Below are positions 405 through 18,019 of a stretch of DNA of 30,049 bases, piece by piece. The notes under the pieces are model-generated. The model searched no databases. It was not told where the DNA came from and saw nothing but the letters and a program-made list of their open reading frames with translations. Every line of letters begins with the position of its first letter. The first letter of the stretch is position 1. The translations under genes and the position numbers were made by a program. Source of the DNA: a virus; IMG/VR virus record IMGVR_UViG_3300021961_000420, positions 1-30,049 of that record, one strand, 5' to 3'.

Positions 405-3400
405 TTAGTTAACTAATTCATTGTGAAGCATAGAACGATTAAAGTAAGCGTTAAATGCGTATGCCTCGACAGGACTAGTCGAAGTGTTTGTGAAAGTAAA
501 CATCGCGTAAGGACCTCTAATCTTGTCCCCATCGATGAATGAGTTTGAGTTGACTGCTATCACCGTGCCAACCACTGGAACGTATGAGCCAACGAAATCT
601 ATAACGTTTCTATCAGATATAGATGATATGGCAGTTGTTACACTTCCAAAGTTTCCGCCACCTGTGCTCACACTTATCGTACCGTTAAGCGGGAACGATA
701 GATTGTAAACATCAGACGAGAACGTAACTCTGTATCCGCCAGTTATGGCAACCACAGATGAAACCTTTCCGAGCGGGACGATATTAGAGGTGGACGATAT
801 CGCGGTAGGAACACTAGAATAGTATGCTCCCTCTCGCTTGTCCATAGATGTTACAGTATCAGTTGACTGCTCCTTCGTCTCCACAGAAAAGTTCCACGCA
901 GCGTCACCTTCGATGCTTATTGCCTCGTATACCTTGACCATAGAGTTATTCTGAGACGATACAACCTTCACCTGACTGACTCCAGCGTTTCCGTAGAACG
1001 TGTTTCTGGTCGATGCATCGGTGTGCTCCCAGGCAGCTCCGTTCTTGAACGTAATCATTACGTTGTCTACGTATATGCCAGACTCTGGTATGAATGAGTA
1101 TCTAGTTCTCCAAACCCCACCTTTGACATCGAAAGCTATTGTTTCATCTGAGTAGGTGCCAGGAGATAATCTCTTCTGGAACGATATGATGTACTCACCA
1201 CGCTCAGGGTCCATAGCTCCTACGAACTTGAAGTTGCTATCTCCAATCTTGATAGCGTCTGCTAGCTTAGTCTGAATGTATGAGTCAACACCCTCTTCGC
1301 TAATCGGAGTGATTCCATCTGGACCGAGCCTAATTACTTTGCCAGTGTTAACGTCAGCGAAGTATACTCTACCGAAGAAGTTCACAACAGACTCAGGGTG
1401 CTTGCCTACTCCGTAATCTCCAGCGTAGAAGCTCTGGGCTCCGATGAAGTTTGTAGATACGGTCACTCCTGCTCCTCCACCGATGTACTCAATGAGGTTT
1501 CTATTGATTGGTGCAACTGAACACTTACGCTCCTGAAGTACCGTGATTGAGTCACCACCATCCACGATGTACTGTATGCCACCATAAACAGGCGAGAAGT
1601 CAACGAAGTTAGCCTGAGCTAGATTGAATGATGATAGTGACAATACCTGAGAGTCCAGAACGTAAGGCTCTGAATACGTGATTGTTGATTTTCGATACAC
1701 CTGTCCAGCAGTTGGTGCTGGTGCGTTGGGACGACCTAAGCTAGTGAACTTAGAGTCCGCAAAGTCAGTAATCGAATTATCCTCCACGAATGTATCCTCG
1801 AACGTTGTGGTCATAAGAGGAGTGCTCGTGTATGAAGTCACCACGTTCATTTGGCGGAGCCTGTAGTATACATCTCCGTTAAACGTTTCGATAACTGCTT
1901 GAGTCAAGTTAGATATATTAGCCAGAGAGTATCCTCCGTTAGGCGGTACTGATGTTCCAAGCTGTCCAACTACGTTAGCATTAGCAACAGAGAATGTTAC
2001 TCCGGCACCAACTCTCTTAATAGTTCCGACTCTAACTTCATAAGATGTAAGAATACCTAATATGGTAATACTAATAGTTATGAGGTCACCTGTTCTGATG
2101 TCAAGTGACGTGGTAGCGAATCCGTTGTTTACGGTTATATTGGAAGTCCCAGACGCCCAAGTGTACGAGTAGTCTCTGTCTCCTTTGTGTCTGTATGTAC
2201 CTGAAACGTTCACGACATCGTATACTTCAGATATCTCTCTGTATATGTTTATGTCGGCCTGCTTTATCGGTCTGTAAATCTCAACAACGGTGTTCTTATT
2301 CCACAGGTCAGTATCTCCAATGACCTCAGTCTTAGTAAACCCTCCAGCGTCGGCGTTATTCTTCAGTTTCAAGAACCATCCACTCTTCCTGTCGTCACTA
2401 ACTGTTGTTGTAACAGGGAAATCTGCGGCATTGTAGTATTCGTATCCAACAACGTCAAACTCGTAATCAACGTAGACATTGTCACCACCAGGAAGTGTTC
2501 CAGTCTCATACTTAACTAGCCTTACCTTGTCTCCCTCTCCGAATACATACTCGACTTTAGCGTTCTTGAAGTCTATGTATGAGTACGACTTACCCTCGAG
2601 GGTATTCATAGATACGTAGATGGTATCATCCTTGTCTGCCGCGAACGCCTCGCTCACGCTATGCTGAAGGCAGTAGTTGTAAGACGTGAATGGGGAGTAG
2701 AGCAGTTGCCACTTCCTAGCCCAGCTCGGCGGATTGTGGCTGAGTCTGAACTGCAAAGAGGCAGGGCCGCGTCCGTCAGCTGGACGTTGAGAGTACCAAG
2801 AAATCTCCTTGGCTCCAATCTCGTTAACAGCACCGCTTCTGTTGAACTTGTCGTAGTATACGATTCCGAACTTGTGCTGCTGTCCAGCCTTGAATGTTCT
2901 GTCCGACGGAGTGTAGTATTGTCTAGAGTTGTAGTTCTTGTAGGCTCTAAACTGAAGGAAGCGAGTGGTGTATGCCGTAGCAAGCAACGTTGGGTCAAGC
3001 GTCAACGATATGAATTCTGATGAGCTCATAGGAGCTCCGGTGGCCACATCGTATCCACTTGTGGTCTCTATGCTCACGGCTGTAACTTTCACCAAAAAAG
3101 AAATCTGAGTCGTACCGTAGTTAACAGCGTCAAGAGATATGTTTATAGTTGCATTCCCCTTCAAGTTATGAACCCATCCAGAAGGTTGCAGCGTAGCCTC
3201 ACCTTCCGTGATAGGCACAGTGTAGTTGCCGATGATGTTGTTTATAAATACCGCATACACATCAGGGCTTCCAGTGGTTAGTCCATCGTACGCAGGCAGG
3301 GTGAACTGTTTCGTGATATCGAGCTTTATATCTCCAAGCGAAATGTCAGTCGCAGCGTCATCGTCAGTAAAGTCGATAGCTCCCTCACTTCCAGGAAGTA

Positions 3401-4640
3401 TGCTAATCAATGAAGAAAGCTGAAAATCCATAAACACCTCACTTGGGAACGAGGTAGAGTTTATAGTGTCGCCAACTACGACGTTGAACTTAGAAGTGAT
3501 TACACTTCCTGACGGATTGTAGTATACAGTAGATGCGGTTGTAGGGTTTACGCTGATATATACAGACTGTCCCTTCTCGTTATTAAGCTCTGTTATTGTT
3601 ACGCTTGGGTCCACGTTATCGTAGAACTCAGTGTATCCACCGTAAACGAGTCTATTGCCAGATATAGCCTGTGAGTTAGCTTTCTGCGGCACATTGTCAT
3701 ACATCTTGTTTTGCTCGGCCTGAGCGATGTATGAGCGAAGTTTACTGTTAGTGAACGTTATGGTTTCAGTCGTAGATGTGCGAAGGTTATCTATCTCATC
3801 AGCAACAAAGAAGCCAGTAACGTCAGCAGAGCGAGCAAGTAGTCTAATCTTAGATACGTCAGCACGACTATGGTTAACTGTTACATTGATTGCGTTAAGG
3901 ATATCCTTAGTGGCATCAGACACAAATCCGTCAAGAAGTTGATATGCATTGACTGCAATATCACTATACGGAGATATAGCGGAAACCTCACCATCCTCGT
4001 ATACATACTGGTACGCGAACTGAAAGAACTCATCGTAAACAAAGTTGTCTTCGTTCGGAACTGAAGTGAACGCAACGGTCGGAGGAGCCAGTGGTGGCTG
4101 CTTAGCGGTGGTAATACATACAAGCTTCTCCTCGTCCGTGTAGTTGTACACTCCAGCAGACTTGTATGGGTAACCGGTCCCGAGTAACGCTTTAGTTATG
4201 TTAATTTTCTTTGGGTCAGTAATCCCGTCAGTGAAGTAAGTTATAGTATCTCCGTTCTCCTTGACTATAAAGTCAAACTTAACGAAACACATAGGAGTGA
4301 AACCTAATACGGAATCTCTATATACAAGCCTTACTTGGTCAGTTGACGTTGCGTAATGATACAGGCTGTGGCTTCCATTAGAGTTGTACACAGCGAAGAC
4401 AATCTCGCTCTTCTCTACGTTAAGTCCAGACCCAACAACGATATTGCTACCAGCTGGCAGTTCAGAACCAATGGCGATGCTAATTGCTGAGTTACCACGG
4501 CTGTTCTTCAATACGTCAGAGTTACCATCTTCGTTATTACCAACGTGAACATTCAACGCGTCGACCATCTCGACAGACTTCACAATCAAGAAGTCGTCGT
4601 CCTTATTCAGATAACGAGGAGTTAGCTTGTCTATTGGCAT
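405..4640 (-). CDS. Large tail stabilization (muzzle-type) protein
   Basis: A 1411-residue protein with no signal peptide or membrane segment, rich in Thr, Ser, Val, Tyr and Asn, which suggests a mostly beta-stranded structural protein. The N-terminus (MPIDKLTPRYLNKDDD, then SVEMVDALNV) resembles the start of the large stabilization protein annotated in crAss-like phages, and the length suits that family. In those phages the product is thought to sit at the distal end of the short tail barrel and close it (muzzle); here this is inferred from resemblance and gene order. Two ring-protein genes lie upstream, separated only by an inserted GIY-YIG endonuclease gene, and a cargo-like gene follows. 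Start is the ATG five bases after the endonuclease stop. Alternative: a tail needle or large tail protein of a non-crAss podovirus. Confidence 0.75.
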   Translation of the reverse strand: MPIDKLTPRYLNKDDDFLIVKSVEMVDALNVHVGNNEDGNSDVLKNSRGNSAISIAIGSELPAGSNIVVGSGLNVEKSEIVFAVYNSNGSHSLYHYATSTDQVRLVYRDSVLGFTPMCFVKFDFIVKENGDTITYFTDGITDPKKINITKALLGTGYPYKSAGVYNYTDEEKLVCITTAKQPPLAPPTVAFTSVPNEDNFVYDEFFQFAYQYVYEDGEVSAISPYSDIAVNAYQLLDGFVSDATKDILNAINVTVNHSRADVSKIRLLARSADVTGFFVADEIDNLRTSTTETITFTNSKLRSYIAQAEQNKMYDNVPQKANSQAISGNRLVYGGYTEFYDNVDPSVTITELNNEKGQSVYISVNPTTASTVYYNPSGSVITSKFNVVVGDTINSTSFPSEVFMDFQLSSLISILPGSEGAIDFTDDDAATDISLGDIKLDITKQFTLPAYDGLTTGSPDVYAVFINNIIGNYTVPITEGEATLQPSGWVHNLKGNATINISLDAVNYGTTQISFLVKVTAVSIETTSGYDVATGAPMSSSEFISLTLDPTLLATAYTTRFLQFRAYKNYNSRQYYTPSDRTFKAGQQHKFGIVYYDKFNRSGAVNEIGAKEISWYSQRPADGRGPASLQFRLSHNPPSWARKWQLLYSPFTSYNYCLQHSVSEAFAADKDDTIYVSMNTLEGKSYSYIDFKNAKVEYVFGEGDKVRLVKYETGTLPGGDNVYVDYEFDVVGYEYYNAADFPVTTTVSDDRKSGWFLKLKNNADAGGFTKTEVIGDTDLWNKNTVVEIYRPIKQADINIYREISEVYDVVNVSGTYRHKGDRDYSYTWASGTSNITVNNGFATTSLDIRTGDLITISITILGILTSYEVRVGTIKRVGAGVTFSVANANVVGQLGTSVPPNGGYSLANISNLTQAVIETFNGDVYYRLRQMNVVTSYTSTPLMTTTFEDTFVEDNSITDFADSKFTSLGRPNAPAPTAGQVYRKSTITYSEPYVLDSQVLSLSSFNLAQANFVDFSPVYGGIQYIVDGGDSITVLQERKCSVAPINRNLIEYIGGGAGVTVSTNFIGAQSFYAGDYGVGKHPESVVNFFGRVYFADVNTGKVIRLGPDGITPISEEGVDSYIQTKLADAIKIGDSNFKFVGAMDPERGEYIISFQKRLSPGTYSDETIAFDVKGGVWRTRYSFIPESGIYVDNVMITFKNGAAWEHTDASTRNTFYGNAGVSQVKVVSSQNNSMVKVYEAISIEGDAAWNFSVETKEQSTDTVTSMDKREGAYYSSVPTAISSTSNIVPLGKVSSVVAITGGYRVTFSSDVYNLSFPLNGTISVSTGGGNFGSVTTAISSISDRNVIDFVGSYVPVVGTVIAVNSNSFIDGDKIRGPYAMFTFTNTSTSPVEAYAFNAYFNRSMLHNELVN

Positions 4641-4645
4641 CGGCC

Positions 4646-5044
4646 TTAGTATTTATGTTGAAACCCATTGTATCCCCGTTGATGAAACATAGTTTCGTAC
4701 AGGTGAGCATCTATGGGGCTTTCACAGATGCATAATACTTCATAACCGATAGTAGACTTATTCTTTTTTCTATGGTCAATCATTCTTGTTCTTATATTGT
4801 TTGTAAATCCAACATAGTGCTCTTCAGGAAGATAGTATACTGCATACCCATTTGTTTCACTAAGATACTTTTCTCTAAATCTACGATTGTTGTTCTTTAC
4901 TTTATCTGGATTTTTAACCCTGTAGCTTTTAGCGTAATCTTTCTTGCACATTTTGCAAACAGTATCAACACCATCGGAAGTCCGTGGGTGCTTATTAAAA
5001 CCTTCTAGAGGTTTTACTGTATTGCATTTGTTGCAGTTCTTCAT
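4646..5044 (-). CDS. Zinc-finger GIY-YIG homing-type endonuclease
   Basis: A 132-residue protein with two parts. Residues 4-33 carry a four-cysteine zinc-binding pattern (C4, C7, C30, C33) with the K-P-L-x-x-F and DG spacing often found at the front of phage HNH/GIY-YIG endonucleases. Residues 67-125 form a compact GIY-YIG nuclease: VYY at 69-71, YVG at 77-79, R85/R87, H91 and the likely catalytic E117. Such enzymes nick or cut DNA and usually promote their own spread. The gene sits between two structural genes: its ATG overlaps the stop of the upstream ring protein (TAATG) and its stop is five bases from the next ATG, so it is expressed in the late operon. The DNA looks noticeably more AT-rich than both neighbours, consistent with recent acquisition. 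Function as a homing enzyme is inferred; the nuclease fold is well supported. Confidence 0.85.
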   Translation of the reverse strand: MKNCNKCNTVKPLEGFNKHPRTSDGVDTVCKMCKKDYAKSYRVKNPDKVKNNNRRFREKYLSETNGYAVYYLPEEHYVGFTNNIRTRMIDHRKKNKSTIGYEVLCICESPIDAHLYETMFHQRGYNGFQHKY

Positions 5045-5856
5045 TACATTTTTGGGGATTGCTTGAAATTCTTGCGGATAGTCTTGAGTGCCTCATCTTT
5101 GTTGAAGCTCTTCAGTCTAGCGTTCGCAAGTCTTCTTTCGTTGTAGTATTCCTGTCTGGCTCTGGATTTCTCCCCGAGAGGGACCGTGTTTTTGCGCTCT
5201 ATCAGACGGTAGTAGATATATGAGCGCAGGGCAGGCTCTGCATAGATATGTACCAGTGGGTTAGCGCTACGTGCTTCGTCAGCCACGTACTCAATCACCA
5301 CATAGTCGATGTTGCTCCCTATTGAAAGCTCGATTCTGTTCTGCTCGTGGTTCATTCTGTACTCACCGTTGTAGTGACCTCCACCGAGTCCGTATACCGC
5401 ACCGTATGAGTTGTCGTACAGGAAGTTCCTGAAGATGTATTGGTCGTAACCCTTCACTGACTGGGTGAGCTCGATTGTTCCCTTGTCGTCCTGTCTGTCG
5501 TATACGCCGTCACCGTCCGTGTCAATGGGTAGGCCGTTAGCGTCCTTGACATAAACCTGTGAGTAGTTGATGTTCTTATTGTGCCCGAATATGTAAACGA
5601 GTCCATCAGTTCCTACGTATCCAATCTTCACGATGTCAACGTAATCGTCTGGGAGGTCCACAGTTCTTAGCGCCTGATTCACAGGAAGCTTGATGCTCTT
5701 GACAACCTTAAGCATATCAAACCCGAACTCGCGGAGTCCACGAAGGGCTAGGTTACGAACGAGCGTATCCGTAGCGTCAGATGCGAAGTCGTCCTGCCCC
5801 ACGGTGAGGATGAAGTCATTTACTACCTCGTCGATTGTGATTAGATTCCTAGCCAT
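5044..5856 (-). CDS. Ring/neck (tail tubular-type) protein
   Basis: A 270-residue protein resembling the crAss-like ring proteins that stack below the portal to form the tail barrel, related in role to the gp4/gp11-type connector proteins of podoviruses. The N-terminal half is helical (residues 1-50, ending in a region like FGFDMLK), then a beta-rich part containing LPDDYVD and a calcium-loop-like segment D112-T-D114-G-D116-G-V-Y-D120. The C-terminal third is helical and basic, with a YYRLIERKN segment near residue 215. The gene lies two bases after the other ring protein and its TAA overlaps the ATG of the endonuclease gene. The assignment rests on motif resemblance and on location between capsid and stabilization genes. 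Confidence 0.75.
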   Translation of the reverse strand: MARNLITIDEVVNDFILTVGQDDFASDATDTLVRNLALRGLREFGFDMLKVVKSIKLPVNQALRTVDLPDDYVDIVKIGYVGTDGLVYIFGHNKNINYSQVYVKDANGLPIDTDGDGVYDRQDDKGTIELTQSVKGYDQYIFRNFLYDNSYGAVYGLGGGHYNGEYRMNHEQNRIELSIGSNIDYVVIEYVADEARSANPLVHIYAEPALRSYIYYRLIERKNTVPLGEKSRARQEYYNERRLANARLKSFNKDEALKTIRKNFKQSPKM

Positions 5857-5858
5857 CC

Positions 5859-6590
5859 TTACTGCTTAGTTTGTTCAGACGACGCATACGAGAAGATGTC
5901 GCTGTCTTTAATGTTTACACCAATCATCTTAGCCAACTCAACAATAAGCTGCGGAGTGTAGTGCTCTGGAAGCTCGAAGTCAACGCTAGTTGCCGCATCG
6001 TACACCTCCTTATTGCTCACAACAGTGTAGCCAAACTTAGGAAGTGACACAACACGAGCCTTAGTCGTGGGATTGATTCCAGATGGCTGCTTGTAATACT
6101 TGAGCTTAATCTTCTTTACGTTGGTTGGGTAAACAGTGATGCTGTCAGATACTACGGCGATAGGGTTATTCTCGGTTGGACGAGACAGCGTGCTTCTGAA
6201 TATGTATTCCGCCTTAAGCTCGTCGTAGATGAGGTCAATTGGAATAGAGGTGGTCTGACCCAAGATGAACGTACCGAACGTCTTAGCGGCGATAATTCTA
6301 GCCAAATCAGCTGGCTTTGCGAATGTTCCGTCTACCTGAGAGATAGTGGACTCCTTAGAGAAGAACGCTAGGTCCTCTCTTAACTGCTTGCTTAGGGCCA
6401 TATCTCTATGACCGTCAAGACCTCTGCTCTTGGAAGTAGACGACAGCATATTCTTAGAGAACAAGCTATTGAATACATTCTGCTGAGCCAGCGCAGCAAA
6501 TGCGTTGAAGGTTGACGGTGTGACGAATCCGCGCTCGTCTTTGTTCGCCAAATCCTTCAAAGTAGAATATACTGTATAGACGCTAGCCAT
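5859..6590 (-). CDS. Ring/neck protein (second)
   Basis: A 243-residue soluble protein whose N-terminus (YSTLKDLANKDERGFVTPS, then FNAFAALAQQNVF) resembles a ring/neck protein family conserved in crAss-like phages. The N-terminal half looks helical, the centre (residues 120-190) beta-rich with a YPTNVKKIKLKYYKQP segment, and the C-terminus is a short helix (LPEHYTPQLIVELAKMIG). It probably forms one of the dodecameric rings joining portal to tail; this is inferred from the family. It is the first gene after a strong terminator and has its own TAnnTTTG box 18 bases before the ATG, so it begins a new transcription unit that continues through the second ring protein, endonuclease and stabilization genes. 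Confidence 0.7.
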   Translation of the reverse strand: MASVYTVYSTLKDLANKDERGFVTPSTFNAFAALAQQNVFNSLFSKNMLSSTSKSRGLDGHRDMALSKQLREDLAFFSKESTISQVDGTFAKPADLARIIAAKTFGTFILGQTTSIPIDLIYDELKAEYIFRSTLSRPTENNPIAVVSDSITVYPTNVKKIKLKYYKQPSGINPTTKARVVSLPKFGYTVVSNKEVYDAATSVDFELPEHYTPQLIVELAKMIGVNIKDSDIFSYASSEQTKQ

Positions 6591-7581: not shown

Positions 7582-8922
7582 TTAGGCCTTCTTGAGAAGC
7601 ACGTGGCGGTTAGCGCCGCGCGTTACAAGAGCGATTTCAGAAAGGTAGTTGAACTGAACCAAGTCTTTGGTGTCGTTCGAAGCTCCCATAAATGAACCGG
7701 TCAACCAGTGGTGCATCTCACGGCTAACACCGTTAGTTGCTTTGTAGTTGATTTCGAGTGATGGGTTGCGGTCGCCCGACTTGGGGTCAACTACAGTAGC
7801 CATCGGAATAGCAACACCAGCGAAGTTAGCACCAGCCAACAAGGTGGGGTCGTTCAGAAGCTTCCAGTCGTGCTTGTGGAAAGTGTAACCACCACGTCCG
7901 AATGATTTGAAGCCAAGCTTGATAGCCATATCAGCGCTGTTGTTGAAGGCTCCGTATTGCGTAGCAACACCAGCAGTCAATGAACCAGCGTTACCCTTAG
8001 CAACCAAGTCGTCAAGCAACAGGTCCTGCGTGCGGTCAACGTACAGAGCGTACTCGGGAGAAGCACCCTGCTTGTCAAGCTCCTTGATGATAAGGTCAAG
8101 GTCAGACAACTCAGTGATGTAACCGTTGGTAACCAAACCACGATTCTCGATAGCGGCGAAGTAACCTTCAGAACCTTCTACAGAAACGTTAGCAGTGTTG
8201 GTAACCTTCTGGCCCAGCAACATCATCATCTCACGCTTGTCGAGGAAGCGCTGACGCGTGTCGGCCTCACCCTTCATAAACCAACGGTAGTCACCATTGC
8301 CAAGGTCAATCCATCCGAGGTTCGTAGCTTGTGAGCCAGTCACCTTGAAGATTTCCTTAACAATCATATATGGGTTCGTGCGCTTAACAACGTTCGACTC
8401 GAGGTACTCGGTCGGTTGGTCAGTGCCTTGTCCGTAAAGGTTACCGATGATTGGGAACTCGTAAGTACCAGCAACGATTTGGCTGAGGGGAGCGTCCTCG
8501 AGGTTAGCTACCGTGAAAGAGGTAGTACCAGTGATGGCGGTAACGATAGCGCGCTCCTTGCCGCTCAACAGAACTACGTCGTTAACGCGAACAACGGGAG
8601 CCTGAGCACCGAAGGCGATAACCATAGTCTTACCAGCGGTCGTGTCAGCGGCCAATACAGCCTTCTGGGTTTGGTGGAGGCGAACCTCTTCCCACCACTG
8701 AACTTGGTCAGCAGTTCCAGCGCTCTTTACAGCACCTACCATCTGCAGGAAGCCAGTGATACCCTGAGCACCGAAAGCCTTAACGAGGGCGTCGCGGTTG
8801 TCGGGCTTGTTAACCTCGTTGAAGTAGTCACCCAAAGCGACGTACTTGGCGGGGTCGAGACGCTTGATAGCGTTTGCACCAGAGAAGAAAGTTCCCTGAG
8901 TTGCGGAAGTCATATTTGCCAT
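7582..8922 (-). CDS. Major capsid protein
   Basis: A 446-residue soluble protein with the features of an HK97-fold major capsid protein: a helical N-terminal arm, a segment NPYMIVKEIFKVTGSQAT near residue 185, a central region with VSVEGSEGYFAAIENRG and ITELSDLDLIIKEL, and a beta-rich end (LVQFNYLSEIALVTRGANRHVLLK). Phage capsids often show this type of viral fold and length; crAss-like capsids are slightly longer. Gene context is strong: it directly follows a scaffold-like gene and is followed by the strongest terminator in the window, as expected for the most abundant virion protein. The start is an ATG preceded by an A-rich stretch (AAAAGAAA) rather than a Shine-Dalgarno sequence, as in Bacteroidota. 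It probably shares the promoter upstream of the scaffold gene. Confidence 0.8.
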   Translation of the reverse strand: MANMTSATQGTFFSGANAIKRLDPAKYVALGDYFNEVNKPDNRDALVKAFGAQGITGFLQMVGAVKSAGTADQVQWWEEVRLHQTQKAVLAADTTAGKTMVIAFGAQAPVVRVNDVVLLSGKERAIVTAITGTTSFTVANLEDAPLSQIVAGTYEFPIIGNLYGQGTDQPTEYLESNVVKRTNPYMIVKEIFKVTGSQATNLGWIDLGNGDYRWFMKGEADTRQRFLDKREMMMLLGQKVTNTANVSVEGSEGYFAAIENRGLVTNGYITELSDLDLIIKELDKQGASPEYALYVDRTQDLLLDDLVAKGNAGSLTAGVATQYGAFNNSADMAIKLGFKSFGRGGYTFHKHDWKLLNDPTLLAGANFAGVAIPMATVVDPKSGDRNPSLEINYKATNGVSREMHHWLTGSFMGASNDTKDLVQFNYLSEIALVTRGANRHVLLKKA

Positions 8923-8949: not shown

Positions 8950-10143
8950 TTAAAATCGGAATCTCATCATCGAGTCAGACTCTCCGATGATTTGGCGAAG
9001 CTGCTCCTCTACATTGTTACCTGGCTGTACGTTACCTACGTTAGGTGTATTCACCTTCACGTTTGCTGCCGTCTCTACAACCCGTCTCTGTCCGTCGCTC
9101 ATACCCTGCTGATAAACTGCTTTGACAATTTCGTCTATGTTATCAACTACGGTGCGATGCATACTGAACAGTTCGTGGTTCCATTTACCGCCGCGGTCAA
9201 CGTACTGGTCGAAGTAACTCTCCAGATTAGCGTTTTTGCTTTTGATTGTCTCGCGGTACTTGTCGTTGATTCCGAACGTAAACAACTTCTCTCCAGGGAG
9301 TTCGAAGTCAATTCCATCCAGAGCGTCAACTTCTTGTTCCATCTCTGACAACCATTGCTCGTCAACAAACGATTCAGCCTTAGTCTCTTCCTGAGCAGTC
9401 CTTTCGACTGGTTTCAGGTATGAGCTTCTGAGTGAATCAATCTGCTTTCTAGCGTTACCCGCGTCAATCTTAAGCTGAAGGCTTGCCATCTTCTGCTCCT
9501 TCTCGTCTATAAATTCGGAATCAGTCTTGTATTTCGCCGATACAAGCATATTAACCTCCTCACTAGACAAGTCGGGGTAATCGTTCTGCATCTGGAGCTT
9601 AACCACCGATAGGTCATCCATTTCGGACGGATTCAGTGATTGGTACAGGAACCAGTCCTGTGGGTCGCGCCCAGTTTCTTGAACGAATCTCAGAATCGGC
9701 TCTAGCCGTTCATCAATCGACGCTGGTGTATTGATACGGTATAGGATGTCCTCGAGGTCAAGTCCTAACTGCTCCTGCAGGTATTCATTGACAAACGATT
9801 GGACTTCCTCCTCCGTTGGTTCGTCGGTGGACGACTCTACATCGTCCGTGTCTTGCTGGCGGTACACATATCTATTATCATCAGACTCATCAGTTGAGTT
9901 GTCATCGGATACGGGCTCACTGGGTGTCTCAACAGTTGGCTCCTCGATTTGCGCTGTCTCGTCAGCTAAAGAACTTTCGCTAGCTTCTTCAGTGGTAGCG
10001 TCACTGTTTTGTATTGCGTCAGGTGAATCAACAATCTGCGGATTTACTGACTGATTATCTTGAAAGTCTTCTCCGGGCTGGTCCACGATATTGAGTCCCA
10101 TATCCCTTACGAGGTCTTCCAAGTTGGAAATTCCGTCTGCCAT
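8950..10143 (-). CDS. Putative capsid scaffold (assembly) protein
   Basis: A 397-residue, highly acidic protein. Residues about 15-125 are a low-complexity Asp/Glu/Ser/Thr-rich segment. The rest is predicted helical, with charged heptad-like stretches (for example around residues 190-240) and a Gln-rich tail ending MMRFRF. No enzyme motif, signal or membrane segment. An acidic, coiled, apparently disordered protein encoded just upstream of the major capsid gene (27 bases) is the classic arrangement for an internal scaffold that is removed from the procapsid. The assignment rests on composition and position, not on recognised homology. It is the first gene of its unit, with a TAnnTTTG box 24 bases before the ATG. 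A divergent promoter faces the plus-strand gene on the other side. Confidence 0.65.
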   Translation of the reverse strand: MADGISNLEDLVRDMGLNIVDQPGEDFQDNQSVNPQIVDSPDAIQNSDATTEEASESSLADETAQIEEPTVETPSEPVSDDNSTDESDDNRYVYRQQDTDDVESSTDEPTEEEVQSFVNEYLQEQLGLDLEDILYRINTPASIDERLEPILRFVQETGRDPQDWFLYQSLNPSEMDDLSVVKLQMQNDYPDLSSEEVNMLVSAKYKTDSEFIDEKEQKMASLQLKIDAGNARKQIDSLRSSYLKPVERTAQEETKAESFVDEQWLSEMEQEVDALDGIDFELPGEKLFTFGINDKYRETIKSKNANLESYFDQYVDRGGKWNHELFSMHRTVVDNIDEIVKAVYQQGMSDGQRRVVETAANVKVNTPNVGNVQPGNNVEEQLRQIIGESDSMMRFRF

Positions 10144-10167
10144 AATGAGTTGAATTAAAGTTCTTTA

Positions 10168-10175
10168 CAAAATTA
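10168..10175 (-). promoter_or_regulatory. TAnnTTTG promoter -7 box (TAATTTTG) for scaffold and capsid
   Basis: Exact -7 box on the minus strand, 24 bases before the scaffold ATG. It shares a 109-base divergent region with the plus-strand promoter at 10198-10229. No TTG at standard -33 spacing was found. Confidence 0.6.
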
Positions 10176-10197
10176 TCAAGTCTTGTTCTCACTAAAG

Positions 10198-10229
10198 TTT
10201 GCAGAATTGAAAACTATTTCGTATATTTG
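10198..10229 (+). promoter_or_regulatory. Complete Bacteroidota-type promoter for the plus-strand gene
   Basis: TTTG at 10198-10201, then 20 bases, then TATATTTG at 10222-10229. This matches the known Bacteroidota housekeeping consensus TTTG(-33)/TAnnTTTG(-7) at standard spacing. The ATG follows 23 bases after the box, leaving a leader of roughly 15-20 bases. Confidence 0.75.
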
Positions 10230-10252
10230 AATCAAATAACAAACTAATTCTT

Positions 10253-10567
10253 ATGAAAACATCAATTGCATCACTGTTATTAGTCCTGTCTCTAGGACTC
10301 TTCGCTCAAGAACCTCCTCGCTTCATCCAAGGATTCAACTACACCGTAGAGACTTGCTTAAGTTCTGACGGAACATCGTTTGATTACTTCGAAGTAAAGG
10401 ATGACCAGTACAAGGAACTGAAGAAGGTAATCAACAAACTAAACCGTCGTCGATTCATTCGAATTGACAAGTCTGGACTGCTTATCACTAAGCGCTACGT
10501 GGACCAATGGACCGTTATGACATTCAGTGGTTTTGATTTCAAGCGAATCAGCATCTTCCAAGAATAA
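10253..10567 (+). CDS. Small secreted protein, moron-like
   Basis: A 104-residue protein and the only plus-strand gene in the window. Residues 1-18 form a convincing Sec signal peptide (MKTS, hydrophobic core IASLLLVLSLGL, cleavage after FA before QEPP). The mature part of about 86 residues has one cysteine, a basic stretch KKVINKLNRRRF and alternating hydrophobic residues toward the C-terminus. I do not recognise a family. In a didermic host the mature protein would end in the periplasm or beyond. It has its own complete promoter and a terminator starting at the base after its stop codon, and interrupts a block of minus-strand late genes. This is the arrangement of a moron, a gene that could act independently of the lytic programme, for example in superinfection exclusion or host surface modification. 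That role is inference. Confidence 0.8.
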   Translation: MKTSIASLLLVLSLGLFAQEPPRFIQGFNYTVETCLSSDGTSFDYFEVKDDQYKELKKVINKLNRRRFIRIDKSGLLITKRYVDQWTVMTFSGFDFKRISIFQE

Positions 10568-10597
10568 GAAAGGGGGCTAGCGCCCCCTTCTTTATTT
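10568..10597 (+). terminator. Hairpin terminator between convergent genes, probably bidirectional
   Basis: GGGGGC-TAGC-GCCCCC (10572-10587) with flanking A-rich and T-rich sides: TTCTTTATTTT on the plus strand and TTTCTTATT on the minus strand. It begins at the base after the plus-strand stop and ends 15 bases before the stop of the convergent 222-residue gene, so it can serve both. Confidence 0.85.
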
Positions 10598-10611
10598 TAT
10601 GCCTATCGAGA

Positions 10612-11280
10612 TTACTTGTTAGGCTTTCTGTATTCGGCCGTAGATACTCCAACAGTTCCACCACCGACTGGCTTGTAGAATGCAGGAACACCTAAAGCTC
10701 TATTGTACTGCTCTGGATTAGCCTCCATACGCTTCCTCTTGTCGATTTCCGTTTTACGGCGATTTGAGTTAGCCTTCTCGACCTGCTCTTCCTGCTTCTT
10801 CTTTCTATTCTCTTCGTATGCAGACACCTGCTTCTTTTCAAGCTCCTTGTCTTTCTTTCTGGGGTCGGGAGTAATTGGTCCCCCATTAGCGTACGTCTTT
10901 GGCTTTAGATGTGAATAAGCATTAGTCTTCACAGTCTTAAAGGGGTCCCGGAGACTTTTCGGATTTGGACCTAATTGTTTAGAAGCTTTAGGGTTGGCAG
11001 AGTTAGCAGCGTGAGTCTCTTCCCGATACTTTCCATACATATGTCTGTTTTCTGGATTCTTCAACCAAGCGGAAAGTTCTCCAGAGTTCATAGTCGATTG
11101 TTTCTTACCATTTACCGATAAATCAACGCTAGCACCAGACTCTGATAATTTCGTAATACGTTTAGGCTGGTAAGTCATTGATTGCTCCTTAGGCTTAACA
11201 ACTGCCTTCTCTACCTTAGGACGCTCTTCTTGCTTCTTGGGGTCCGTCTTGCCTCCTTGGGCGTATTTTCTAGCTTTCAT
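10612..11280 (-). CDS. Basic tagged protein of unknown function, possible virion component
   Basis: A 222-residue, strongly basic (pI clearly high), Lys/Asn/Pro/Glu-rich protein without membrane segments. It contains the motif Tyr-Ala-x-Gly-Gly twice: KYAQGG at residues 5-10 and TYANGG at 129-134. Each is followed within a few residues by DP and a Lys/Arg run, suggesting internal duplication of a short tag plus charged helix. The C-terminal half (140-190) is a dense charged helix (EENRKKKQEEQVEKA); the tail is Gly/Val-rich. A comparable N-terminal motif occurs on the cargo-like partial protein at the left edge. I cannot name a function; an encapsidated or DNA-associated role is speculative. 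A TAnnTTTG box lies 17 bases before the ATG, so it appears to be a single-gene unit ending at the shared terminator. Confidence 0.75.
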   Translation of the reverse strand: MKARKYAQGGKTDPKKQEERPKVEKAVVKPKEQSMTYQPKRITKLSESGASVDLSVNGKKQSTMNSGELSAWLKNPENRHMYGKYREETHAANSANPKASKQLGPNPKSLRDPFKTVKTNAYSHLKPKTYANGGPITPDPRKKDKELEKKQVSAYEENRKKKQEEQVEKANSNRRKTEIDKRKRMEANPEQYNRALGVPAFYKPVGGGTVGVSTAEYRKPNK

Positions 11281-11317: not shown

Positions 11318-11602
11318 TTACCATTTTACACGGTCAGCCCAATACGCCGCGCTCATCTTACCCTTAGCGATATTCTTAGCGTGACGTGCCTTGAAGCTAG
11401 CACGCTTCTTAGCTCTGGCTCCGGTTGGGTTGCTCTCAGTTACGGTGTCGGCCCCCTTCTCCCCGAATCTAATCAGTTTGGTTCTGCTGCCCTCCTTAGC
11501 TAGCACGATGTGCGACTTCTTAGGGTGCGACGGAGTAGCCTTGGCTTTGTTTACACCAGCGAGTCCGTGCTTCTTAATGAGGTTCTTGATTCTGTTTTCC
11601 AT
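11318..11602 (-). CDS. Small basic conserved phage protein
   Basis: A 94-residue, very basic protein. The C-terminal half (SFKARHAKNIAKGKMSAAYW and following residues) and the centre (HIVLAKEGSRTKLIRFG) resemble a small protein found in many marine and freshwater tailed phages, whose function is not known to me. The high Lys/Arg content suggests nucleic-acid contact or packaging. Its ATG overlaps the TAA of the preceding 103-residue membrane gene by one base (TAATG), so translation is probably coupled. It is the last gene of a four-gene unit that otherwise encodes membrane proteins. Confidence 0.75.
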   Translation of the reverse strand: MENRIKNLIKKHGLAGVNKAKATPSHPKKSHIVLAKEGSRTKLIRFGEKGADTVTESNPTGARAKKRASFKARHAKNIAKGKMSAAYWADRVKW

Positions 11603-11913
11603 TATTTGCGCATCTTTAGCGCTTGATTCTCACGCTCCAAGAAGTCCACCTTGACTCTTAACGTGTGAACCTCAGCAGTAAGGTCCAAAATCTTTTTACG
11701 GAGTTCATCTTTCTCATCCGCAGAGCGGGCCAACAGTTCTTCCAAATTACGTACTCTGTTCTTTAGGTCGTCACGATATAGGTGGGTGTCACTGTTTGCC
11801 AACTCATCCTTTTTAGAGTCTGCAATCATTTTCATTCTGTTGGTGTAGAACTGGAAAGCGGCACCACTACCGAGTACCGTTACAACCGTGATGGCAATCT
11901 GAGCGAGGTCCAT
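11602..11913 (-). CDS. Single-span membrane coiled-coil protein (candidate inner-membrane spanin)
   Basis: A 103-residue protein with one N-terminal membrane segment (residues about 3-23, IAITVVTVLGSGAAF) followed by a long charged helix (residues 30-100) with a clear coiled-coil pattern (KKDEL, RNLEELL, ERENQALK). This is the layout of an i-spanin (Rz-like) protein, which spans the inner membrane and reaches across the periplasm during lysis. No overlapping Rz1-type lipoprotein gene is visible, so the assignment is tentative. It is also the layout of many small unassigned phage membrane proteins. The ATG overlaps the stop of the upstream membrane gene (TAATG), indicating coupled expression. 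Confidence 0.7.
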   Translation of the reverse strand: MDLAQIAITVVTVLGSGAAFQFYTNRMKMIADSKKDELANSDTHLYRDDLKNRVRNLEELLARSADEKDELRKKILDLTAEVHTLRVKVDFLERENQALKMRK

Positions 11914-12311
11914 TATTTAGACGAGTATTTCTTTTTGATTTCTTCGATGTGCTTCTGATTCTCTACACGGATAATGTTCCATCCAGAGAAACCCAAAACC
12001 AGTAACCAGCCCATATTCGAACCGTGCAACATACCCTCCATAAGGTAATTCAGAACCGTAGCTACGGCAACGAGGAAGGCAATCTTAACGGCATTAGCAC
12101 GAATACCCAAACCACCGTGCCAGAGAACTGCGTAACCCTGATAGACACCACAAGCCATAGACGCTAAACAGAGCCACGGAGAAGAGAACATCTCGGTGTA
12201 TAGTGCAGCAGGGAGGATGAATGTGTGGAGCACGGACGTGAACACCTCATTAGGCTCGCTGTCACTGTATTTAAATATGCTAACGACCCTCTTAATACCT
12301 TTCTCTTCCAT
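11913..12311 (-). CDS. Multi-span membrane protein, unknown
   Basis: About 132 residues with three to four hydrophobic segments (numbered from a possible GTG one codon earlier at 12314): about 26-43 (TSVLHTFILPAALYTEM), 45-65 (SPWLCLASMACGVYQGYAVLW), 74-96 (NAVKIAFLVAVATVLNYLM) and 101-117 (MGWLLVLGFSGWNIIRV), with a basic cytoplasmic-looking tail ending KKKYSSK. I chose the ATG at 12311; the frame also has a GTG at 12314 immediately before it. No family was recognised. Sitting between a two-span small membrane protein and a spanin-like protein, it may belong to a lysis cassette as a holin or holin partner, but no endolysin gene is present in the window. Confidence 0.7.
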   Translation of the reverse strand: MEEKGIKRVVSIFKYSDSEPNEVFTSVLHTFILPAALYTEMFSSPWLCLASMACGVYQGYAVLWHGGLGIRANAVKIAFLVAVATVLNYLMEGMLHGSNMGWLLVLGFSGWNIIRVENQKHIEEIKKKYSSK

Positions 12312-12328
12312 CACGTCTGCTATGTGTA

Positions 12329-13390: not shown

Positions 13391-13777
13391 TTAACAAGTA
13401 AACACATCGGTTATCTTTCCTGTTGAATTGATTAGGTACGAGTAGCCACCTGAATACCACCACTTATCTACACCGTCAAACGCAGCCTCAAGAGTATTGT
13501 TCGTGTAGACGGTTACGTTTAGCGCAAGCGCAGACTCAGCGGCATATACTACTTGCGTTCCAGCCGATGCACCATCAACACAGCATTGTTCAGCGTCTGC
13601 ATATCCAACATCAGATATCTGAAATTCTGTTGCCATCGAGAATCCGTAGAACTCACTCATTGAATCAGGAGTTGAGAATCCAGCAAGAGAGGAGAGGGTC
13701 CTCAAGCTTCCACTTGCAGAACCCAACTCCGTCTTGATGTCGTTGATACTTATAGCGCCGGCTGACTGAAGTGCCAT
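13391..13777 (-). CDS. Small fibre-associated protein
   Basis: A 128-residue protein. The N-terminus (AISINDIKTELG, a short variable link, then SMSEFYGFSM) matches a pattern common in small tail-fibre or receptor-contact proteins of aquatic phages, where I-x-x-N-D-I-x-x-E-x-G leads to a surface domain. The rest is probably a compact beta domain with an adjacent cysteine pair (QCC, residues 83-84) and a C-terminal cysteine (DVFTC), which may form a disulfide or bind metal. Its ATG overlaps the stop of the 1413-residue fibre gene (TAATG), implying coupled translation with that fibre. A tip adhesin or fibre assembly partner is the likely role; this is inferred. Confidence 0.7.
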   Translation of the reverse strand: MALQSAGAISINDIKTELGSASGSLRTLSSLAGFSTPDSMSEFYGFSMATEFQISDVGYADAEQCCVDGASAGTQVVYAAESALALNVTVYTNNTLEAAFDGVDKWWYSGGYSYLINSTGKITDVFTC

Positions 13778-16700
13778 TATTGTTTAAGTTTTTCTTCCAA
13801 AAGTTCAACACGTGCTGCGAGTTCTTTGTTTGACTCAATCAAGAGTGCAATCAGTTTCTCGTAGCGTACAGCCAAGAACCCAGTGTCGTTAGTTCTTACA
13901 GCAGTCGGCATAACCTCTTGCACCTGCTGAGCGATTACTCCGGTGTCGTGGCCTTCGTGTCCGTGTGCGTCCTTGTGTTCAGGCTTCCAATCAAACTCAA
14001 CACCAGTGAGTGACTTCACTTTCTCAAGTGCGTTCTCAATCGGAGTGATGTTTTCTTTGAGACGCTCGTCTGAAGAGTTGAACGCTACGATGTCGTTGGA
14101 TGCGTCAATACGTCCAGCAGTTCCCGATGGGGCTATGCTTCCTACGCCGAGGGATACACCGTTGATGTGTACGTCCTTGTTGAGGTTTATTCTTGCGAAC
14201 GCACCGGCACCGATAACCAAGTAGTTGGATGAGTTGGTGAACATCGCACTAACGGAGACTCCGCTTGTTGTGTGGATGCGGTATCCCTTAGTGTTGTCGG
14301 AGTGGTTGTTTACAAGGATTGATGGAGCGTAGATTGTATCGCTAGCCTTGATGTTTCCTGACACATCAAGTTTTTCTGAAGGTGCTGTGGTATTGATTCC
14401 TACTTTTTGACCGCTTTGCGTTTGCAGTAAGATATCTCTTCCTGATACATTTTCAGTATCAATATATAAGTCTCCACCATCGCCTAGAATATATCTATTG
14501 CCACCACGTAAAGTTAAATCTCCACTTTGTATGGTCTTACCATTACCATCAATCTGCCATTGTATTTCACCACCTCTTGAACCAATAATAAAGTGTCTAA
14601 TCTCAGAGGAAGGACTATCTGTTAGTCTACCACGCTCAATGAAGATACCATTTGACGTACTACCGCTCGTGTTATTTAGATTAGCATAGATAGCGGTTTG
14701 CGTATATGTAGAGCCATTACCATTACCAGTAAATATTAGAGGTGTTGTACCATTTATAGTTTGATTGGTTCCAACATATAAACTTGTAGCAAACGTAGCA
14801 GCTCCATCTTGATACGAATTACCGCTAACTCGTAGTTTGTATCCAGAATCCGATGTAGTTCCAATAAGGACGTTGCCGTTTTGTAAAAGCGTTAAGACAG
14901 ATGTCGCTTGGTCATCTTTAACAAAACGAAAATCATTAGTTCCGTTTTGATTGTAGTCATTTATCAAAGTCCACCTTGGAACAGTTCCACTTGCAACACC
15001 ATTTAAGAAGTCAAGGCGGGTAGCACGATTGGTTGAGCCAGTACCAGCAAGTAGTTTAAGGCCAGCTTGACCCGTATCTGTTGCTGCATAAATAATTGAA
15101 TTAGCGCCACTTGAAGCGTTTACAACTAATTTTTCCGCTGGCGCCGTCGTGCCAATGCCGACGTTGCCAGAACCATTGATAATCATATCAGTAGTTCCAC
15201 CTCTGTCGAACTTAAGAACAGCTACAGAATAATTCCTTGTTATCCTTGCCTCCTCTGTCCCTGCAATATCATAGTATATCTCAAGGTTTGAAGTGGTATT
15301 CCATCTTCCAAACTTTGTTCTTGTTACATATGCAGAAACATATTCGTTGAGTATTCCTTGATGGTATGTAGCATCTAAGTCTGTTATAAATGAGCCACCA
15401 TATACGTGAAGCTTCCCAGATGGAGTCGTAGTACCAATGCCGACGTTGCCATTACCCTTGATGACCATCTTCTGTGTGGCATCATTAAGGTTTGATGTAT
15501 TTTCGTCGTGAGTATAAAAGTTTAGCTGCGTACTCCAGTCAACAGCATTCTGGCTTCTTGAACCTGTAATACCACTCCAGTGAGTTCCTATAGCGCTTCC
15601 GGTGGCAAAGTAAATTCCCACCATATCGTCATCATTATTTGAAAGGGTGTTGATTATCCCCTTCATATTGGTTTGTCTAGTTATGGTACTAGAGTATGCA
15701 TTCGCTCCAGACGATGACACGTGAAGAGATGAATCAGGAGCAGTGTAGTTGATACCTATGTTGCCGCCATTTTTCAAGTATAGCTGAGATGTAGAAGCAT
15801 TAGTTCCTAAGCTTAGGTCTACACTAGCGTTTGTATAAATCTTATGTAGTGATGTAGTATCGGCATCTAAAACCAAAGTGTTTGTAGGAGATGCTTGAGT
15901 TACATATACTCCGCCTCTAGCTTGAGCTACTCCCTGAACTGATAAGGTAAATGTTGGACTCGTCGTACCAATACCGACGTTGCCAGTTGACGTGATTCGC
16001 ATTCGCTCGCCTGGGTTAGAGCCATCTGAACGAGTGTAAAACGCCAAGTATCCTGCCTTATTTGCAAAAGTTATGTTTTCTTTAGCGCCTTGAATTGCAC
16101 CATAAACAAATCCACCATCACCTGCTTCACCACCAAGACCTATAGTGCCCCCACGTCCAGGGCTTTGTGGTGTTGTTGTTATGACTGTTAAGTTATACGC
16201 ATCACCAGATGATATGCTATAGTTTGCATCTGATACGTGTAATTTGGCACCAGGACTCGTAGTACCAATACCGACGTTGCCACCCCAAGGGAGCATAACA
16301 ATATTAGCCGCTTTTGTATCAGCTGCAGAAGTTTCAATATACATCTGCTCGGTAATTCCGTAGTCAGACCCCACACCCCACGTTGTCACATAAAATGACA
16401 GCTTACCGGTGTAGGAATAACTAGGAGAAGGTGCAGCTTTTACAGCTCCTGCAGCATAAGCTACCCCCGCAGGAGTACTACCTAGGTACAGTCCTCCTTC
16501 GTATGAGCCATAGTTTGAACGAATAACTTGAGCTACGTCTAAAGCATATTGAGGAGCCGTAGTACCAATGCCGACGTTGCCGGCGGCGGTTATACGCATT
16601 TTTTCATTACCATTAGTATAGAATACTAAAGGTTTATTGTCTAAAACATAGATGTCCCCAGTACTACTTGATAATCCAAACAACATTCCTTCAGAAGTTG

Positions 16701-18018
16701 ATGCTTGATTGGATAGAGCTACTGATATATAAGCCTGGCTAGATACTGCTCCTTTGAAAGAAGCCACATAGCCATACGTTGCATTATTGTATGTTTGAGA
16801 AGTTGTCCCTACTTGAAGAGTACCATCTGTGGTGATACGCACCCGCTCTGAACCGGCAGTTCCGAATGCCAAAGCCATACCCGTTGAGGTATCTATTAAG
16901 GCATTTGTATCTTGACCTACTACGTTAGGGTTTAACAATATGCTTTTAGTGCCTCTTGTGAAATATGACACTCCATCGCCTTTTACTTCAAACAAGCCAG
17001 ATGGACTAGTAGTGCCAATGCCGACCACGCCTGCGCTGGTGATGCGGAGGCGTTCCGAAGAATTGGTATTAAAAATCATAGCATTGGTTGCAGCCAATGT
17101 GCCATTTGTACCATCGGCTTCCATCTGAAGAACGCCTGCTCCTGCACCAATGCGACTAACACGAACAATACCACCCCCAGAAGCGTCAACGTGCAAAGCA
17201 ACAGCCGGACTAGTAGTCCCAATGCCGACGTTGCCACTTGTCGTTAGATGCAACACTGGTGTTGTTGAACTAATGTCATCCCCAGTACCAATGCTAAAAT
17301 TGTTATTAACCCCACCTCCTCTGCGTAGAACACCTTGATACCATCCAGCCGCACCACTAAGAGTGTGTAAGATTTGAGATGCCCTTAGGTTGCTACCCCG
17401 GTCTATTTGAATACTAGCACCACCAGAGGCATTTCTATTGCTCACCATCAACTGAGTGGTATCCCCCACCGCATCTGCATCAATATGTAGCATAGATGTT
17501 GGACTCGTCGTGCCAATTCCGACGTTGCCTGCGCTAGTGATGCGCATTGCTTCGGAGCTATTTGTATAAAAACTTAAAATGCTTGAGCCATCTGCTCTCA
17601 ATCTTGCATCTCCGGTTCCGCCAAATTCACTTGTACCCCCAGTTGTTTTTATATAAGCATAAGTACTTGATAAAGAGTTTGACCTTAATACTCTTAATTC
17701 AGCTACATTGCTATTGTCATCACCGACAGTTAGTTTAGCTCCAGGACTCGCCGTACCAATGCCTACGTTGCCACTACCAAGAATGGTAACTCTGTTGTAT
17801 GCTGTACCTCCAGCATCAGTTGTTTGAAATTTGAATCCCTCATTGTTATGGCCTTGAAAAACCATATAATAAGACTCCAAGAATATAGACTTATCAGTAG
17901 AAGATGTCTCACTTCCAAATATCAATCTCGGAGAGTTTCCAAGATTTCCAGCATATAGCTGAGTATATCCAGTTGTACTAAGAGTTCCAGTGATGCTGGT
18001 ACTTAAAAGATTAGCCAT
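13777..18018 (-). CDS. Giant fibre protein with GNVGIGTTSP repeats and S74 chaperone
   Basis: A 1413-residue fibre. After about 80 residues come some 13 copies of a module beginning (G)NVGIGTTSP and then a x-x-L-H-V strand, each followed by 60-130 residues of variable beta-rich sequence. Residues about 1315-1413 are an S74 intramolecular chaperone: SSDERLKENI holds the Ser-Lys dyad used for self-cleavage, then a His-rich insertion HKDAHGHEGHDTG, GVIAQQVQEVMP, and a final coiled coil ending ELLEEKLKQ. S74 domains help trimeric beta-helical fibres fold and are then cut off. The protein is thus almost certainly a trimeric host-contact fibre. It begins one base after the stop of the 1573-residue fibre. 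Whether it is mounted on the tail or on the head is unresolved: the portal-side position recalls head fibres of crAss-like phages. Confidence 0.88.
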   Translation of the reverse strand: MANLLSTSITGTLSTTGYTQLYAGNLGNSPRLIFGSETSSTDKSIFLESYYMVFQGHNNEGFKFQTTDAGGTAYNRVTILGSGNVGIGTASPGAKLTVGDDNSNVAELRVLRSNSLSSTYAYIKTTGGTSEFGGTGDARLRADGSSILSFYTNSSEAMRITSAGNVGIGTTSPTSMLHIDADAVGDTTQLMVSNRNASGGASIQIDRGSNLRASQILHTLSGAAGWYQGVLRRGGGVNNNFSIGTGDDISSTTPVLHLTTSGNVGIGTTSPAVALHVDASGGGIVRVSRIGAGAGVLQMEADGTNGTLAATNAMIFNTNSSERLRITSAGVVGIGTTSPSGLFEVKGDGVSYFTRGTKSILLNPNVVGQDTNALIDTSTGMALAFGTAGSERVRITTDGTLQVGTTSQTYNNATYGYVASFKGAVSSQAYISVALSNQASTSEGMLFGLSSSTGDIYVLDNKPLVFYTNGNEKMRITAAGNVGIGTTAPQYALDVAQVIRSNYGSYEGGLYLGSTPAGVAYAAGAVKAAPSPSYSYTGKLSFYVTTWGVGSDYGITEQMYIETSAADTKAANIVMLPWGGNVGIGTTSPGAKLHVSDANYSISSGDAYNLTVITTTPQSPGRGGTIGLGGEAGDGGFVYGAIQGAKENITFANKAGYLAFYTRSDGSNPGERMRITSTGNVGIGTTSPTFTLSVQGVAQARGGVYVTQASPTNTLVLDADTTSLHKIYTNASVDLSLGTNASTSQLYLKNGGNIGINYTAPDSSLHVSSSGANAYSSTITRQTNMKGIINTLSNNDDDMVGIYFATGSAIGTHWSGITGSRSQNAVDWSTQLNFYTHDENTSNLNDATQKMVIKGNGNVGIGTTTPSGKLHVYGGSFITDLDATYHQGILNEYVSAYVTRTKFGRWNTTSNLEIYYDIAGTEEARITRNYSVAVLKFDRGGTTDMIINGSGNVGIGTTAPAEKLVVNASSGANSIIYAATDTGQAGLKLLAGTGSTNRATRLDFLNGVASGTVPRWTLINDYNQNGTNDFRFVKDDQATSVLTLLQNGNVLIGTTSDSGYKLRVSGNSYQDGAATFATSLYVGTNQTINGTTPLIFTGNGNGSTYTQTAIYANLNNTSGSTSNGIFIERGRLTDSPSSEIRHFIIGSRGGEIQWQIDGNGKTIQSGDLTLRGGNRYILGDGGDLYIDTENVSGRDILLQTQSGQKVGINTTAPSEKLDVSGNIKASDTIYAPSILVNNHSDNTKGYRIHTTSGVSVSAMFTNSSNYLVIGAGAFARINLNKDVHINGVSLGVGSIAPSGTAGRIDASNDIVAFNSSDERLKENITPIENALEKVKSLTGVEFDWKPEHKDAHGHEGHDTGVIAQQVQEVMPTAVRTNDTGFLAVRYEKLIALLIESNKELAARVELLEEKLKQ

Positions 18019-18019
18019 A

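What the first reader, a model, noticed from the sequence alone, without database searches (positions are those of the whole stretch)
10144..10597. Autonomous secreted-protein gene inside the late virion block
A 104-residue protein with a clear signal peptide, complete host-type promoter and immediate terminator lies opposite to all neighbours, between a tagged virion-like gene and the scaffold/capsid genes. This is the classic moron layout. A secreted product from a phage points to superinfection exclusion, receptor masking or surface change, and I recognise no family.
Basis: partly seen in the sequence, partly recalled or inferred. Interest (0 to 1): 0.65.

Follow-up and report, generated by a model that had tools for sequence, protein, structure and literature searches.

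The report
Swappable secreted-protein slot in Bacteroidota phages
A bacterial virus carries, backwards among its capsid genes, a small exported protein with its own early-type promoter; about a third of its relatives use the same spot for an exported protein, but the working part comes in at least ten unrelated versions, as expected of a gene caught in a contest at the cell envelope, perhaps to keep rival viruses out.

Summary
Window 10253-10567 (+) encodes a 104-aa protein with a rule-based signal peptide (cut about A18|Q19), a perfect Bacteroidota sigma-A promoter (10198-10229) and a hairpin terminator. It lies opposite the late block between a tagged small gene and the scaffold-like/capsid genes of an Elemovirus/Callevirus-like phage. 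Of 77 informative relatives, 29 carry an opposite-strand signal-peptide gene in this slot and 48 have the slot closed (gaps of at most about 112 bp). The mature domains form ten groups with no profile similarity; within one clade (capsid protein 93-97% identical) three alternate, in one pair switching just behind a near-identical promoter and signal peptide. In a 67-kb relative this promoter type also begins early replication operons, and the gene points in the early direction, so early host-polymerase expression is likely. No family, solved or viral structure, isolate or bacterial homologue was found. Predicted fold: beta-beta-alpha-beta4. Best explanation: an early periplasmic protein of an exchangeable accessory locus, most likely for superinfection exclusion, working like T4 Spackle but unrelated to it. 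Slot, promoter and swapping are shown by sequence; export, timing and function are inferred.

The parts
10198..10229 (+). Bacteroidota sigma-A promoter: TTTG (10198-10201), 20-nt spacer, TATATTTG (10222-10229)
   Evidence: -7 box TAnnTTTG as in PMC9723704
10253..10567 (+). secreted accessory protein gene, 104 aa, mature-domain type A
10253..10306 (+). signal peptide, residues 1-18; the part shared with type B genes of close relatives
   Evidence: rule-based; first residues low-confidence in the AF2 model
10307..10564 (+). mature domain, predicted fold beta-beta-alpha-beta-beta-beta-beta; the part that is exchanged between phages
10561..10598 (.). G+C-rich hairpin terminator (AAGGGGGC-TAGC-GCCCCCTT, A/T-rich flanks), probably serving both convergent genes
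   Evidence: hairpins also follow most other slot genes
10144..10252 (.). divergent intergenic region holding the promoter; its counterpart is 99% identical between L039 (type A) and L081 (type B)
8950..10143 (-). left flank: scaffold-like gene (by position, upstream of the capsid-type gene 7582-8922)
10612..11280 (-). right flank: small gene with N-terminal MKARKYAQGGK tag, variable among relatives

Best explanation
The gene is one occupant of a variable accessory (moron) slot in Elemovirus/Callevirus-like Bacteroidota phages. Host RNA polymerase transcribes it early from its own promoter, against the later late-gene transcription; the terminator isolates it (promoter and terminator shown by sequence, timing inferred). 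The product is exported by a signal peptide and cleaved to an ~86-residue soluble periplasmic protein (inferred). Phages exchange the mature domain by recombination behind a near-constant promoter and signal peptide, or lose the cassette (shown by comparison). Most likely the protein makes the infected cell resistant to related incoming phages by binding a periplasmic entry component (an ejected virion protein, a virion-borne peptidoglycan hydrolase, or a host envelope protein needed for DNA entry), in the manner of T4 Spackle (inferred); domain variety would reflect a contest with variable partners.
For: Slot specificity: 27 strict signal-peptide ORFs on this strand in 59 kb of slot against 0 in 398 kb upstream and 2 in 645 kb downstream; with L018 and L081, which the strict rule missed, 29 of 77 informative relatives. 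48 empty slots with flanks intact. Ten mature groups, best pairwise hhalign probability 3.6%. Swap boundary: L039 (A) and L081 (B), capsid distance ~0.003, scaffold 97%, intergenic 99%, signal peptide 93%, mature 44%. Window against L017: flank 97%, signal peptide 95%, mature 64%. Promoter conserved in place, and two further promoters of the same kind stand before early operons of the 67-kb relative, whose early genes (exonuclease, primase/helicase, ribonucleotide reductase) run in the slot gene's direction. No phage integrase (PF00589) in four long relatives. T4 Spackle is a precedent: early, periplasmic, 75-aa mature, inhibits the tail lysozyme (PMC7677548).
Against: No functional homology of any kind. 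Pfam found no lysozyme domain in the 2596-aa late protein of G001, its 448-aa late protein or the window's 1410-aa protein, so a Spackle-type target is unidentified. Window and G004 share type A although their large fibre proteins are largely unrelated in the centre (28%), which speaks against simple receptor- or fibre-matched blocking. Signal peptide is rule-based; expression was not measured.
Confidence: 0.45

Rival explanations
1. Early periplasmic host-takeover or counter-defence protein: it binds a variable host envelope target (protease, stress sensor, envelope-located defence) to protect the current infection, not to exclude others.
For: Accessory, exchangeable, early-type promoter, exported; variety would follow host variety.
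Against: No similarity to known anti-defence or inhibitor proteins in Pfam, PHROGs, NCBIfam or PDB. No host target known.
Confidence: 0.28
2. Lysis-timing protein: a periplasmic regulator of the phage's own holin, endolysin or spanin, comparable to T4 RI in lysis inhibition.
For: Small secreted protein; holin-like membrane genes 11602-12314 lie 1-2 kb away.
Against: Own early-type promoter on the opposite strand, absent from 48 of 77 relatives, ten unrelated forms while the neighbouring membrane genes stay similar in those close relatives that have them.
Confidence: 0.12
3. Secreted or surface product serving the infected population outside the phage cycle (bacterial competition, adhesion).
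For: Host-type promoter and secretion, as in lysogenic-conversion morons.
Against: No integrase PF00589 found, so the infected cell would soon die; no homologue in bacterial genomes in two scans.
Confidence: 0.06
4. Minor virion or assembly protein that happens to have a hydrophobic N-terminus.
For: Lies inside the late block.
Against: Opposite strand, early-type promoter, missing from most relatives and from the isolates elemo, phi38:1, Gundel_1 and the genome ctfjg026.
Confidence: 0.03

Closest known systems
T4 Spackle (gp61.3), early periplasmic superinfection-exclusion protein (PMC7677548)
   Same: Virulent phage, early gene, small exported soluble protein (75-aa mature; here ~86), accessory envelope function
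   Different: Spackle is an alpha-helical bundle with a disulfide; this is beta-beta-alpha-beta4; no sequence or structure match; here the locus exchanges unrelated mature domains
Glo of Vibrio cholerae, soluble periplasmic exclusion protein (cited in PMC3952083)
   Same: Soluble periplasmic exclusion protein, not anchored
   Different: Named there as the exception among exclusion proteins with membrane or lipid anchors; no relationship tested here
Ltp-type superinfection-exclusion lipoproteins (PMC3952083)
   Same: Phage-encoded exported exclusion proteins from an accessory locus; two Ltp proteins differ in which phages they inhibit
   Different: Lipid-anchored, in the lysogeny module of temperate phages, one family; here no lipobox in the window protein (only L096 has one), phages without PF00589 integrase, unrelated families in one slot
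Phage morons
   Same: Own promoter and terminator, opposite strand within the late block, present or absent with flanks intact
   Different: Slot keeps promoter and, between close relatives, signal peptide while the mature domain alone is swapped
Elemovirus elemoF and Callevirus phi38una (isolated relatives)
   Same: Homologous portal and capsid-type genes and gene order (portal 30-32%, capsid-type protein 35% identity for elemo)
   Different: Portal and the gene before the capsid gene are adjacent; no slot gene

Membership tests
Phage moron (accessory autonomous gene) | own promoter | tested here: met
Phage moron (accessory autonomous gene) | own terminator | tested here: met
Phage moron (accessory autonomous gene) | absent from relatives with flanks intact | tested here: met
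   48 of 77 informative relatives, gaps at most ~112 bp; at least 4 changes of presence forced, 7 most parsimonious
T4 Spackle family | sequence or profile similarity, or same fold | tested here: not met
   No hits; predicted mixed alpha/beta against helical bundle
T4 Spackle family | early expression and periplasmic location | not testable with these tools
   Consistent: early-type promoter, signal peptide by rule
T4 Spackle family | inhibits virion lysozyme | tested here: inconclusive
   No lysozyme domain found by Pfam in three late proteins; binding not testable
Superinfection-exclusion proteins (functional class) | blocks infection by related phage | not testable with these tools
   needs an infection experiment
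Exclusion lipoproteins (Ltp type) | lipobox cysteine after the hydrophobic core | tested here: not met
   Window protein has A18-Q19 and no cysteine there; L096 alone has ..FSSC
Virion structural protein | conserved in relatives, co-transcribed with late genes | tested here: not met

The most novel reading that the evidence does not exclude
A dedicated cargo slot in which virulent Bacteroidota phages trade envelope-acting mature domains behind a fixed early promoter and, between close relatives, a fixed signal peptide, giving a typing system in which each domain type excludes a different set of competing phages.
Probability: 0.3. Interest if true: 0.72.

Novelty: new variant of a known kind. 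Interest (0 to 1): 0.58.

Why it matters
It points to a slot that can be found by synteny alone and that holds at least ten unannotated families of small exported phage proteins, each a candidate exclusion or envelope-acting factor for flavobacterial phages. Natural pairs with near-identical flanks but different cargo (L039/L081, L021/L022) make the function directly testable, and the swap point behind the signal peptide is an unusually clear case of cargo exchange in phages that look virulent.

Tried and rejected
Family searches with the window protein (PHROGs, Pfam, NCBIfam) and with ten other slot proteins (Pfam, PHROGs; four also NCBIfam and PADLOC): only sub-threshold hits; the PADLOC hits for the window protein (E 0.0014, 0.0048) are weak partial matches and were not believed. 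Rep3_N at E 0.074 rejected. PDB profile search: one hit, E 0.46. Foldseek PDB and BFVD: none under 0.001, TM at most about 0.45. AF2 model of type B poor (pLDDT 51), so a shared fold with type A (similar order of elements) is undecided. tblastn of six slot types (A, B, D, E, G, J) against isolated phages: none. Two scans of 84,980 genomes with type A: none (patterns reach limited distance). Tail-fibre type against slot type: fibres are all different mosaics, so no proper test; only the type A pair window/G004 is informative. Virion-component and pseudogene readings rejected (absence in relatives; purifying selection).

Full report
What is there. ORF 10253-10567 on the plus strand encodes 104 residues, MKTSIASLLLVLSLGLFA|QEPPRF..., with a typical export signal by rule. 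TTTG-N20-TATATTTG ends 23 nt before the ATG; TAnnTTTG is the -7 box of flavobacterial sigma-A promoters (PMC9723704). A strong hairpin with an A/T-rich tail follows the stop codon. Flanking genes on the minus strand are the scaffold-like 8950-10143 and the tagged 10612-11280. The phage belongs with Elemovirus and Callevirus: portal about 30-32% and capsid-type protein about 35% identical to isolates of Flavobacterium and Cellulophaga. The window itself is a whole 30-kb virus record, probably a fragment. Capsid and scaffold are named by gene order; PHROGs calls the capsid-type gene only a virion structural protein.

The same slot in relatives. Eighty loci were fetched through the capsid-type gene. 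In 78 the scaffold-like gene could be placed; one of these (L059) ends in the slot, leaving 77. A strict signal-peptide rule, run on the strand opposite the late genes, finds 27 ORFs in the 59 kb of slot, none in 398 kb upstream and two in 645 kb downstream. L018 and L081, missed by the strict rule, make 29. The other 48 have a co-directional gene 15 to 112 bp before the scaffold-like gene and no opposite-strand ORF. Related loci are not independent; on a tree of the capsid-type protein presence changes at least 7 times by parsimony, 4 forced by well-supported branches. The assignment of L052 (type H) and of the J group to exactly this slot is less certain, because the scaffold start is poorly placed there or the distance is larger.

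Mature domains are exchanged. The mature parts fall into ten groups (A-J) with no detectable profile similarity (best hhalign probability 3.6%). In the window's own clade, capsid-type protein 93-97% identical, types A, B and C alternate, and B occurs in two places of the tree. L039 (A) and L081 (B) are 97% identical in the scaffold gene, 99% in the divergent promoter region, 93% in the signal peptide and 44% (unrelated) in the mature part; L021 (A) and L022 (C) are 97% and 94% and then diverge from the start of the gene; the window and L017, both A, are 97%, 99%, 95% and then 64%, with synonymous divergence 0.21 in the signal peptide and about 1.7 in the mature part. So replacement by recombination, not rapid point mutation, makes the variety; within type A dN/dS is about 0.1-0.24. 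The downstream tagged gene often changes as well, so the right crossover may lie beyond the terminator.

When it is expressed. In the 67-kb relative G001 the late genes run on one strand (about 11.8-53.7 kb), and the replication genes on the other (exonuclease, primase/helicase, both ribonucleotide reductase subunits), in the slot gene's direction. The strict promoter pattern occurs four times there: ahead of the early block (54881), before an early gene (1590), in the slot (31921) and once without the shared TTTGCA start (62437). G002 has counterparts of both other early sites, G003 of one. Early host-polymerase transcription is therefore likely, but no expression data were found. Slot genes of types D, E, F, H, I and J lack the strict promoter; E, H and I have a relaxed form with the same spacing.

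What it could do. The type A model is confident outside the signal peptide (mean pLDDT 83; beta-beta-alpha-beta-beta-beta-beta) but matches nothing significantly. No family library, isolated phage or bacterial genome holds a relative at the sensitivity used. The features (early-type promoter, export, small size, accessory, exchangeable mature part, phages without PF00589 integrase) match the logic of T4 Spackle, an early periplasmic protein that inhibits the tail lysozyme of superinfecting phage (PMC7677548). It is not a member of that family: sequence and predicted fold differ. Counter-defence or host-envelope takeover would leave the same genomic traces and is the main rival. Simple matching to the tail fibre is not favoured, since the window and G004 share type A while their large fibre proteins are mostly unrelated.

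Verdict. Observation confirmed; moron reading supported; function inferred only. The new part is the slot: one position, in the window's clade one early-type promoter and a shared export signal, and across relatives at least ten cargoes. A search of the held literature for exclusion proteins of Bacteroidota phages found no description of such a slot, but that library lacks most subscription papers.

Noticed in passing
window 10612-11280; L099 1603-2496 (G001 21603-22496); L026 5748-6767: Short tag of the form K-Y-(A/K)-x-G-G-(K/G) at the start of, or inside, several small basic late proteins of these phages, on otherwise different bodies; possibly a packaging or processing tag.
   Followed up: no
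window 13777-22741: Two very large fibre genes are mosaics: conserved ends (C-terminal ~100-180 aa at 63-80%) with unrelated centres among close relatives.
   Followed up: partly
window 405-4640: The 1411-aa late protein bears the crAss-phage muzzle C-terminal domain PF25729 (E 3.9e-8), linking these podoviruses to Crassvirales tail architecture.
   Followed up: no
window 4646-5044; L099 12835-13371 (G001 32835-33371): Endonuclease VII/HNH-like gene between late genes in the window, and in L017/G001 an extra 178-aa protein inserted beside the slot that looks like a homing endonuclease; present in some relatives only, probably mobile.
   Followed up: no
window 10144-10190 and the same place in L017-L023, L039, L081: Strongly conserved A/T-rich block (ATAATGAGTTGAATTAAAGTTCnTTACAAAATTATC) before the scaffold-like gene, perhaps its late promoter on the minus strand.
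   Followed up: no
L099 13649-14017 (G001 33649-34017, minus strand): A second signal-peptide protein (MRLLLLSLLLCSLSMYSQS...), on the late strand near the slot in G001; possibly a spanin or lysis protein.
   Followed up: no
L049 10125-10831: Matches to the genes of window 5044-5856 and 5859-6590 appear shortened and inverted within the late block; real inversion or assembly error.
   Followed up: no
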